Below are positions 1 through 44,914 of a stretch of 64,000 bases of DNA, in pieces. Positions within the stretch are counted from its first letter, which is position 1, and each line of letters starts with the position of its first letter. The translations under genes were made by a program, and so were the position numbers. Source of the stretch: an uncultured Methylophaga sp. (GTDB taxonomy: Bacteria > Pseudomonadota > Gammaproteobacteria > Nitrosococcales > Methylophagaceae); contig NZ_CAMYKO010000006.1 of assembly GCF_947259025.1 (NCBI RefSeq), positions 1-64,000 on the forward strand, in the 5' to 3' direction. The notes beneath the pieces are model-generated. The model did not search any database and was not told the origin of the DNA. It saw only the letters and a program-made list of their open reading frames with translations.

Positions 1-68
1 AAGGGTCAGCCACAGGGATGTGGCTGATAAAGTAGGTCACCTTAAATGCTGAACCAAGACTTGATACG

Positions 69-102
69 TACCCGGTCCTCATAGAGGCCCGGGTATTTTT
101 TT
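69..102 (+). terminator. Rho-independent terminator in repeat module 1
   Basis: TACCCGG (69-75) pairs with CCGGGTA (89-95), with an inner CCTC/GAGG extension, and a run of seven T follows. It is almost identical to the hairpin at 433-465. Confidence 0.8.
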
Positions 103-242
103 GTCTCAAGGTTTGGGATAGTCCTGTCTTGAGTCGGGAAGATACCCATGTGACATTATCGCCGGGAGCGATAATGGACGCCGGTAGGCGCCCGAAGGGC
201 TGGGCACAGGAAGTGCCCAGTCAAAGTAGGTCGGAGAATAAG

Positions 243-270
243 CCAAGCTTAGTGAGGTTGGCCTTTTTAT
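243..270 (+). terminator. Terminator-like hairpin in repeat module 2
   Basis: GCCAA (243-247) can pair with TTGGC about ten bases downstream, followed by a T-rich stretch and GTCTCA as in the other two modules. The stem is shorter than in modules 1 and 3. Confidence 0.5.
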
Positions 271-432
271 TGTCTCAATGTTTTGCTGTGACCTCACCTG
301 AGCATGGCAACAACTCATGTGACAAAAACGTCAGGAACTTTTTTGGACGCCGATAGGCGCCCGGAGGGCTGGGCACAGGAAGTGCCCAGTCAAAGTAGGT
401 CACCTTAAATGTTAACCCAAGACTTGATACGC

Positions 433-465
433 ACCCGGTCCTCATAGAGGCCCGGGTATTTTTTT
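433..465 (+). terminator. Rho-independent terminator in repeat module 3
   Basis: ACCCGG pairs with CCGGGT around a CCTC/GAGG inner stem, followed by a seven-T run. It is the near copy of the hairpin at 69-102. Confidence 0.8.
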
Positions 466-518
466 GTCTTGAGGTTTCGCATTCCCCAGTCAGACCAGCT
501 CAAAGAAAAAGCCAAATA

Positions 519-3888: not shown

Positions 3889-4596
3889 TCAGTCCTTACG
3901 GCAGTGAACGAGGTAGTTCACCTTGACGTCTTTGCCCAGGCTGAACTGGCGGCTCAGCGGGTTATACGTCATGCCACTGATATTTTTGACGCCAAGCCCG
4001 GCCTGGCGACACCAGCTGGCCAGTTCGGCAGGTCGGATAAAGCGTTGATAGTCATGCGTGCCTTTTGGCAGCATATTCATCACATATTCAGCGCCCAGCA
4101 CTGCCAGCAGATAGGCTTTGGGGTGACGGTTGAGGGTGGAGAAAAACACATCGCCACCGGGTTTGACCAGATCCGCGCAGGCCTGAATGATAGCGGCCGG
4201 GTCGGGCACGTGCTCCAGCATTTCCAGACAAGTCACCACATCAAATTCGGCAGCATGCTGCTGCGCCATGGCTTCAGCGGTGCTTTGTTGATAATGAATA
4301 TCAAGCCCGCCTTCCATAGCATGCAGCTTGGCTATATCCAGAGGCATTTCACCCATATCAATACCCGTCACATGGGCACCGCTCTTCGCCAGCGCTTCAG
4401 ATAAAATACCGCCACCACAACCGACATCGATAACAGCGGCCTGGTCCAACTGGCATCGCTCGGCAATATAGCCCAGCCTTAGCGGATTAATTTCATGCAA
4501 TGGTTTGGAGTCGCCCTCCAGATCCCACCAACTGGCGGCCAGGGCTTCAAACTTAGCGACCTCATTAGGGTCGACATTCTGATGGATTTCACTCAT
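3889..4596 (-). CDS. ubiG: Ubiquinone biosynthesis O-methyltransferase UbiG
   Basis: 235-residue SAM-dependent methyltransferase that does both O-methylations in ubiquinone synthesis. The N terminus ([21 protein letters not shown]) is diagnostic of UbiG. The SAM-binding motif I is DVGCGGG at 57-63, followed by [15 protein letters not shown] and by EMLEHVPDP, and the C-terminal block has [11 protein letters not shown]. The gene lies one base upstream of the mupP-like start and overlaps the deaminase stop by four bases, so it sits in a compact minus-strand operon. Length equals that of known UbiG proteins. Confidence 0.95.
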
Positions 4597-12346: not shown

Positions 12347-12426
12347 AACTATCCTTACTGAGCATGCAGCGCAAAAGGACAGTGACGCATCAACAATAAA
12401 TTTATCTGGAAGCGTGATTCAGCCTG

Positions 12427-12506
12427 TCCCTACGCCAGTGTTATCTGGATCAGGTTCATCGGGTTCTCTCTTGGCAGAGGTATCTCAGGCGCTTGGCCAC
12501 CCCGAG
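12427..12506 (-). ncRNA. TPP riboswitch (THI element)
   Basis: On the minus strand the sequence carries the closing stem CTCGGGG, the pyrimidine-sensing core with CTGAGA, and the pyrophosphate-sensing part ACCCGATGAACCTGAT, then CCAGATAACACTGGCGTAGGGA. All are hallmark segments of the thi-box in the right order. It ends about 80 bases before the receptor start, leaving room for a stem that either terminates transcription or covers the ribosome-binding site. Confidence 0.95.
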
Positions 12507-12597
12507 GCAAAATTCCATTGGGAAAAATGAAGACAAATCCGTGTGTAGTGTGGGTAATTCTAATTTATCACTGATTTTTTTACCAGTGGCTGGGCAC

Positions 12598-44559: not shown

Positions 44560-44914
<355 letters not shown>

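What the first reader, a model, noticed from the sequence alone, without database searches (positions are those of the whole stretch)
1..480. Array of GGA-loop hairpins with terminators: possible CsrA-sequestering RNA or repeat family
Seen: hairpins with loops GGGA (6-27), CGGGA (155-175) and AGGAA (200-220, 369-389), plus GCCC/GGGC around GGA near 361-369. Stem-loop 6-27 contains ACAGGGATGT, which fits the core of the CsrA SELEX consensus (ACARGGAUGU). The modules end in near-identical intrinsic terminators. Known: CsrB, CsrC, RsmY and RsmZ RNAs present GGA in loops to titrate CsrA. Inference: one or more small RNAs of this kind lie here. The alternative is an intergenic repeat family of marine gammaproteobacteria with no regulatory role.
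Basis: partly seen in the sequence, partly recalled or inferred. Interest (0 to 1): 0.65.

Follow-up and report, generated by a model that had tools for sequence, protein, structure and literature searches.

The report
RrB-type hairpin repeats tailing rRNA operons
The hairpin array is most likely the tail of a ribosomal RNA operon, made of tandem copies of a module also found behind E. coli rRNA operons, where its RNA binds the regulator CsrA in vitro; the same module is scattered through many bacterial genomes, so part of its spread may be selfish.

Summary
In detail: four GGA-loop hairpins with stems of at least 8 bp lie in 480 bases, against 0.003 on average in shuffles. The window begins at a contig end. 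The two other copies of the array in this (probably Methylophaga) genome begin 87-96 bases behind 5S rRNA genes. Units end in the 3' part of 5S rRNA (AAAGTAGGTC). So this is most likely an rRNA-operon tail, not a stand-alone sRNA locus. A covariance model built without E. coli finds the E. coli rrnB T1-T2 spacer (RrB; 42 bits, E 7.5e-8), published as a CsrA- and Hfq-binding RNA. CsrA binding here is plausible but untested. Against a purely regulatory reading, the module is also a dispersed repeat: 6 non-rrn sites in this genome, 133 of 370 sampled genomes of the class, and behind tRNA genes with the tRNA 3' end repeated after it. GGA loops are as well kept there as in rrn tails. Stems covary strongly; G-U pairs are scarce. 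I call it a tandem variant of the known rrn-linked repeat (TLR/RrB) class: rrn identity about 0.9, the whole CsrA reading about even.

The parts
1..40 (+). 3' part of a first unit cut off by the contig end: hairpin D 6-27 (loop GGGA) and 5S-tail copy AAAGTAGGTCAC 29-40
   Evidence: R1 match 47.4 bits, cut off at its 5' end; contig start
60..102 (+). intrinsic terminator (stem 68-96, then T run)
   Evidence: fold -19.2 kcal/mol; also found by the hairpin-plus-T-run check
104..153 (+). 5' part of unit 1, ending in CATGTGA (147-153) as in the 5S rRNA
154..234 (+). module 1: hairpin A 154-176 (loop CGGGA, GGA 165-167), CCCGAAGGG 191-199, hairpin D 200-220 (loop AGGAA, GGA 209-211), 5S-tail copy AAAGTAGGTC 223-232
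   Evidence: R1 61.2 bits, R2 79.4 bits E 7e-15 (R2 was trained on a set that includes it)
236..270 (+). weaker terminator-like hairpin with T run
   Evidence: fold -9.6 kcal/mol
272..322 (+). 5' part of unit 2, ending in CATGTGA (316-322)
323..403 (+). module 2: hairpin A 323-345 (loop CAGGA, 8 of 9 pairs, GGA 334-336), CCCGGAGGG 360-368, hairpin D 369-389 (loop AGGAA, GGA 378-380), 5S-tail copy AAAGTAGGTCAC 392-403
   Evidence: R1 59.6 bits, R2 77.9 bits E 1.4e-14 (R2 was trained on a set that includes it)
423..465 (+). intrinsic terminator (stem 433-457, T run 459-465), near-copy of 60-102
   Evidence: fold -16.7 kcal/mol; 58/64 identity of 46-109 and 409-472

Best explanation
The array is the 3' tail of a third rRNA operon whose rRNA genes lie beyond the contig end. 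It consists of tandem units: a degenerate stretch, a module of two GGA-loop hairpins and a copy of the 5S rRNA 3' part, with intrinsic terminators between many of them. The module is the one that forms E. coli RrA/RrB/RrF. Most likely mode of action: RNA polymerase leaving the rRNA operon sometimes reads through the first terminator; the read-through RNA is cut at the 5S-like 3' part (RNase E in the model proposed for E. coli); the short product presents two GGA loops 44 nt apart, which can hold a CsrA dimer, so CsrA buffering rises with rRNA synthesis. Shown here: sequence, 5S context of two of the three arrays, relation to RrB, conservation of loops and pairing. Inferred: rrn context of the window's own copy, read-through, processing, CsrA binding and its effect. 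Identity as an rrn-tail RrB-type array: about 0.9. CsrA binding of a transcript: about 0.6. A physiological effect on CsrA: about 0.3.
For: Own genome: BLAST places at C6 1-480, the end of C1 and the start of C5. 5S genes (99.3 bits each) lie at C1:225720-225834 and C5:9-123, 96 and 87 bases before the first module. Eight units examined (of ten, one of them cut) share 10-15 exact nt with the 5S 3' part. In two single-contig congeners 6 of 6 detected 5S genes are followed by at least one module; 9 of their 25 listed modules (30 in all) are so placed. In an exact-pattern scan 20 stretches matched and 6 of them (5 genomes: Methylophaga thiooxydans, Idiomarina zobellii, Aliikangiella marina twice, two MAGs) lie right behind a 5S gene. 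Model R1, built from 6 units without E. coli, scores rrnB T1-T2 at 42.2 bits, E 7.5e-8. Covariation score 0.587 against 0.176 in shuffles and 0.591 against 0.172. Intact 5-nt hairpin A loops carry GGA in 31/32 rrn-linked and 53/54 other modules; hairpin D loops in 38/38 and 52/55. Three csrA matches over cut-off. PMC8144298 (sections read) reports RrB-CsrA binding with KD about 100 nM, not seen after changing three GGA motifs.
Against: No transcript data; no promoter-like site found. GGA loops are kept as well in dispersed modules as in rrn tails, so the conservation does not point to an rrn-specific role. G-U pairs are rare in the stems (27 of 1713 standard pairs against 24 of 484 in 22 tRNAs, p 1e-4), which hints at DNA-level rather than RNA-level constraint. 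8 of 47 genomes without detected CsrA still carry the module, one (95% complete, about 470 contigs) with 11 matches. Both models were trained on GGA-loop units and favour them, and the alignments were fitted to the structure. Only 4 of 10 units are followed by a strong terminator, 3 by a weak one, 3 by none found. In E. coli the in vivo effects are modest and contradictory (PMC8144298). One two-contig congener (G007, two 5S genes) has no module at E <= 0.01.
Confidence: 0.45

Rival explanations
1. The module is a selfish or neutral dispersed hairpin element. It has inserted after an A in many places, among them a partial 5S copy, and tandem duplication made the rrn arrays. GGA loops are kept because the mobilising machinery needs them, and there is no regulatory role.
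For: 6 dispersed sites in this genome and up to 22 matches in a congener; 133/370 class and 57/299 phylum-sample genomes. Interrupted and uninterrupted copies of one host repeat lie side by side at C5:739904, read by eye. In L112 one module sits in the hairpin A loop of another. The base before the module is A in 54 of 55 non-5S and 31 of 37 5S modules. Few G-U pairs.
Against: No mobilising gene was sought or found; flanks do not fold better than controls. 6 of 6 5S genes in two single-contig congeners have a module behind them, and E. coli RrB is conserved behind 5S and binds CsrA (PMC8144298).
Confidence: 0.35
2. The units are decaying 5S rRNA pseudogenes with insertions, without function, as Stepanov and Fox proposed for Pseudoalteromonas.
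For: Location behind 5S, lost termini and large insertions match their description (passages of PMC7812874); 5S-tail copies are short, 10-15 exact nt.
Against: Covarying stems with conserved loops are not expected of decay; the same module follows tRNA genes and lies elsewhere.
Confidence: 0.1
3. The array serves as a reinforced, multi-step terminator or RNA-processing buffer at the end of a very active operon; the GGA loops are incidental.
For: 4 of 10 units are followed by a strong and 3 by a weak terminator-like hairpin.
Against: 3 of 10 units have no terminator found within 75 bases; it does not explain loop conservation or dispersed copies.
Confidence: 0.07
4. A stand-alone sRNA locus of the CsrB/RsmX type with its own promoter.
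For: Weak rsmX-like match, 19.8 bits.
Against: Below the cut-off of 56 bits; no promoter-like site; placed behind 5S in the two other copies.
Confidence: 0.03

Closest known systems
E. coli RrA/RrB/RrF sRNAs (rrn-linked TLRs between rrn terminators T1 and T2; PMC8144298)
   Same: Position behind 5S and a terminator; 9-bp hairpin with CGGGA loop, CCCGGAGGG, 8-bp hairpin with AGGAC loop, then the 5S 3' part; found by a model trained without it
   Different: Tandem units (five on C1, two on C5, two full and one cut here) instead of one; junction with the 5S sequence is GTGA^AAGTAGG here and GTAGGA^AACTGCC in E. coli; 5S repeat 10-15 nt instead of 18; stem sequences differ
tRNA-linked repeats (TLR) of E. 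coli, e.g. rttR behind tyrT-tyrV
   Same: Repeat of the 3' end of the upstream stable RNA gene; in other genera the module itself sits in such repeats behind tRNA genes
   Different: The E. coli rttR repeats give only 10.6-11.3 bits with R2, not significant; other E. coli tRNA-linked repeats were not examined
5S rRNA pseudogenes with insertions in Pseudoalteromonas and Peptococcaceae (PMC7812874)
   Different: Described there as likely untranscribed pseudogenes; their sequences were not compared here
CsrB/CsrC/RsmX/Y/Z
   Same: GGA motifs in hairpin loops
   Different: No family member by Rfam; no promoter-like site; two GGA-loop hairpins per unit
BRE repeat of Bordetella and other Betaproteobacteria (PMC3110155)
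   Same: About 90 bp, dispersed and tandem, partly transcribed, mobile-like (abstract and one section read)
   Different: Sequence not compared here; relation unknown

Membership tests
RrA/B/F (rrn-linked TLR sRNA) | lies behind a 5S rRNA gene and its terminator | tested here: inconclusive
   Met for the C1 and C5 arrays; the window copy starts at a contig end, so inferred from 96% identity to the C1 array over 294 nt
RrA/B/F (rrn-linked TLR sRNA) | 3' part repeats the 5S 3' end (18 bp in E. coli) | tested here: met
   10 and 12 exact nt in the two full window units, up to 15 on C1; shorter than in E. coli
RrA/B/F (rrn-linked TLR sRNA) | homologous hairpin module with GGA in two loops | tested here: met
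   R1 to E. coli rrB 42.2 bits, E 7.5e-8, E. coli not in the model
RrA/B/F (rrn-linked TLR sRNA) | transcribed by read-through and processed | not testable with these tools
   no transcript data
RrA/B/F (rrn-linked TLR sRNA) | binds CsrA and Hfq | not testable with these tools
   needs gel shift; three csrA matches in the genome; hfq not searched
CsrB/RsmX/RsmY/RsmZ families | match to the Rfam model over its cut-off | tested here: not met
   none at gathering threshold; rsmX 19.8 of 56 bits, RsmV 14.3 of 100
5S pseudogene with insertion (Stepanov and Fox) | truncated 5S with insertion at the distal end of an rRNA operon | tested here: met
   CATGTGA (5 of 8 units checked) and AAAGTAGGTC (8 of 8) of the 5S flank the module; arrays behind 5S on C1 and C5
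5S pseudogene with insertion (Stepanov and Fox) | decay without constraint | tested here: not met
   covariation and loop conservation of the inserted module
Dispersed mobile repeat | several unrelated genomic sites, filled and empty | tested here: met
   6 non-rrn sites; one filled/empty pair at C5:739904 read by eye
Dispersed mobile repeat | known mobilising enzyme or terminal signals | tested here: inconclusive
   only an A before the module is common; no hairpin at the joined flanks; no enzyme sought

The most novel reading that the evidence does not exclude
The module is a mobile element about 75 nt long that carries two CsrA sites. It inserts after an A into tRNA T-loop copies, 5S tails and other repeats across Pseudomonadota, and is the common origin of the rrn- and tRNA-linked repeats with GGA hairpins. 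In rRNA tails it has been multiplied into arrays that tie CsrA activity to ribosome synthesis.
Probability: 0.25. Interest if true: 0.75.

Novelty: new variant of a known kind. Interest (0 to 1): 0.5.

Why it matters
RrA/B/F were reported from a BLAST search as conserved in Enterobacteriales, and the paper, from a prediction program, calls them unique among E. coli TLRs in CsrA affinity. Here a module with the same two GGA-loop hairpins is found in 133 of 370 sampled genomes of the class, in tandem behind 5S genes and also behind tRNA genes. That links three separately described things: rrn T1-T2 sRNAs, tRNA-linked repeats and (by description only) 5S pseudogenes with insertions. It gives a testable idea of how CsrA activity could follow rRNA synthesis, and opens the question of what spreads a hairpin element whose loops look like CsrA sites.

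Tried and rejected
CsrB/RsmX/Y/Z membership: Rfam search, no match over cut-off; RsmZ model over the whole genome, nothing over cut-off; the other Csr/Rsm families were not searched genome-wide.

Insertion into host hairpins: from a few sites I suspected that the module goes into hairpin loops. Joined flanks of 91 modules do not fold better than 772 control stretches (mean stem 5.4 vs 5.6 pairs, p 0.74; MFE p 0.37), so this is dropped. It remains only as single cases (L112, tRNA T-loop copies).

CsrA dependence: module in 125 of 323 CsrA-positive and 8 of 47 CsrA-negative genomes, Fisher p 0.003. 27 of the 47 negatives are not listed by the tool; I read them from gaps in the handle numbers, assuming both calls drew the same 370 genomes.

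rrn-specific selection on GGA loops: no difference between rrn-linked and other modules. E. coli rttR as a carrier of the module: not significant. Window array on plasmids: no match. Two GTAGGTC matches near 45.2-45.3 kb carry no module. Alcanivorax sRNA paper PMC9788540 (passages only): its two CsrA-related sRNAs are not described as rrn-linked.

Rows dropped: 103 model matches in alignments A5 and A6 reduced to 93 distinct modules and 91 complete ones with enough flank. L087 and L018 have the same coordinates and are taken as one locus reached twice. One weak opposite-strand match in L006 (E 0.054) taken as chance. Of the 20 pattern stretches, 9 were scanned by cmscan (6 behind 5S, 3 without 5S); the other 11 were not examined and are taken as chance from their organisms. 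Of the 28 class loci, 9 tRNA-linked and 1 5S-linked were read in detail. Match lists are cut by the tool.

Full report
Observation. Four with a stem of at least 8 bp and GGA in the loop fall in 480 bases; shuffles give 0.003 on average, and the other 132 tiles of the window hold two in all. The region is built of repeats: 96-232 and 265-401 (77%), and 2-128 and 365-491 (80%). Two terminators are near-copies; the one ending near 270 is different and weaker.

Context. Position 1 of the window is position 1 of contig C6. The array recurs at the end of contig C1 (read on the minus strand; 96% over 294 nt) and at the start of contig C5 (69% in its best stretch). Both of those contig ends start in the same 5S rRNA sequence, a full 5S gene by Rfam (99.3 bits), 96 and 87 bases before the first module. 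No 16S gene was found in the assembly, so the contigs probably break at the rRNA operons. The window array continues into different genes from the C1 array, so it is most likely the tail of a third operon; this step is inferred. The genus is most likely Methylophaga: the genome with the M. thiooxydans DMS010 locus has the same match coordinates as a genome listed as same genus.

Anatomy of a unit. Order: a degenerate stretch often ending CATGTGA; hairpin A (9 bp, loop CNGGA as a rule); a variable hairpin; CCCGAAGGG as a rule; hairpin D (8 bp, loop ANGGA as a rule); then AAAGTAGGTC(AC), the 3' part of 5S. In the 5S gene CATGTGA and AAGTAGGTCAC are contiguous, so the module interrupts a partial 5S copy. 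C1 carries five units, C5 two, the window two and a cut one. Of these ten, four are followed within 75 bases by a strong terminator hairpin (-15.9 to -18.6 kcal/mol), three by a weak one (-4.4 to -8.6) and three by none found. The two GGA of one module are 44 nt apart in both window modules; that this suits a CsrA dimer, and the CsrA SELEX consensus, are recalled knowledge.

Relatives. A pattern scan of 84,980 species gave 20 stretches. Six, from five gammaproteobacterial genomes, lie directly behind a 5S gene. The E. coli rrnB T1-T2 spacer has the same order of parts. A covariance model from six units without E. coli finds it at 42.2 bits, E 7.5e-8, in 120,732 bases. The E. coli stretch itself recurs in 3950 of 5426 E. 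coli genomes. Stenum et al. 2021 (PMC8144298; abstract, introduction, two results sections and part 1 of 2 of the discussion read) report this spacer as sRNAs RrA/B/F that bind CsrA (KD about 100 nM, GGA-dependent) and Hfq, with modest in vivo effects, and suggest RNase E recognition of the 5S-like 3' end. Their BLAST search found homologs in Enterobacteriales. Stepanov and Fox 2021 (PMC7812874; abstract and passages read) describe 5S pseudogenes with insertions at the same place in Pseudoalteromonas, each preceded by a terminator and 'likely not transcribed'.

Conservation. Over 59 distinct aligned modules, 91.9% of cells pair and the covariation score is 0.587, against 0.176 in shuffles and 0.05-0.11 for slid partners. 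A second set of 35 gives 95.2% and 0.591, against 0.172 in shuffles and 0.04-0.13 for slid partners. These alignments were fitted to the structure and lean towards it. Among 93 distinct modules, intact 5-nt A loops carry GGA in 31/32 (rrn-linked) and 53/54 (others), and D loops in 38/38 and 52/55; in 6 rrn-linked modules and 1 other the A loop is interrupted, truncated or lost. Both models were built from GGA units, so some bias is expected. G-U pairs are 27 of 1713 standard pairs, against 24 of 484 in 22 tRNAs from loci of the same set (p 1e-4). This is a hint, not proof, that stems are kept as DNA palindromes.

Not only rRNA tails. In this genome 15 matches reach E <= 2.1e-4: nine in rrn-type arrays and six elsewhere. 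One of the six interrupts a repeat whose uninterrupted copy lies beside it (C5:739904; read by eye). None of the six loci has a tRNA gene within the 1.8-2.3 kb fetched. In the genus 21 of 24 genomes, this one included, have matches. In two single-contig congeners 6 of 6 5S genes are followed by at least one module, and 9 of their 25 listed modules (30 in all) are so placed; a two-contig congener with two 5S genes has no match. In the class 133 of 370 genomes match, with at most 12 candidates scored per genome, so copy numbers are lower bounds. In a phylum sample 57 of 299 match, 30 of them outside the class; these were not inspected. Of 28 top-scoring class loci, two follow a 5S gene and nine follow a tRNA gene on the same strand. 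In eight of these nine, 11-19 nt of the tRNA 3' part follow hairpin D directly, the architecture of tRNA-linked repeats. In the ninth a module sits inside the hairpin A loop of another. The base before the module is A in 54 of 55 non-5S modules and 31 of 37 5S ones.

Mechanism. The E. coli precedent, the loops and the rrn position make read-through RNAs that bind CsrA the best functional reading. The dispersed copies with equally kept loops, the scarcity of G-U and the modules in some genomes without detected CsrA (8 of 47) favour an element with a life of its own. Both may be true: a spreading hairpin element whose rrn copies happen to bind, or are used to bind, CsrA. No RsmZ-family match reaches its cut-off in this genome; the other Csr/Rsm families were not searched genome-wide.

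Novelty. In the literature searches made (listings, with four papers opened in part) I saw no report that links the rrn sRNAs, tRNA-linked repeats and 5S pseudogenes through one module, nor tandem arrays of it in Methylophaga. The library holds open-licence papers only, so this is a weak negative. The array is a tandem variant of a known kind.

Noticed in passing
L006:2742-3716 (contig C1, about 120 bases beyond the last unit there): A KwaB-like gene (Kiwa defence, PF16162, E 1.5e-44) with a neighbouring 195-aa ORF without Pfam match, right beside the rRNA-operon tail on C1.
   Followed up: partly
L006 unit 3 (minus strand, about 4224-4290), L027, L019:5825-5890, L056: A second hairpin type, with CTCCTGCA or similar and CATCCATGGA-ATAA, interrupts 5S copies or the loop of hairpin A in several arrays.
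   Followed up: no
L080, L082, L081, L083, L086: Two further dispersed repeat families (GTCATTGCGAGGCCGAAGGCC... and TTCATTTATTTTG...GCCCAAAATAAA...) in this genome, some copies carrying the module.
   Followed up: partly
L093:1627-1743 (-): A TwoAYGGAY RNA (Rfam RF01731, 43.3 bits, just over cut-off, same clan as rsmX) lies beside two modules.
   Followed up: no
L118 418-490, 596-668, 774-846 (-): The E. coli rttR repeats give three evenly spaced sub-threshold matches (10.6-11.3 bits) to R2, perhaps a distant relation.
   Followed up: no
L108, L096, L097 upstream of the module: The stretch before the module resembles the reverse complement of the tRNA 3' half, so these units may hold an inverted and a direct tRNA copy (read by eye).
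   Followed up: no
window 12409-12514 (-) and 44564-44914 (+): TPP riboswitch and RNase P RNA.
   Followed up: no
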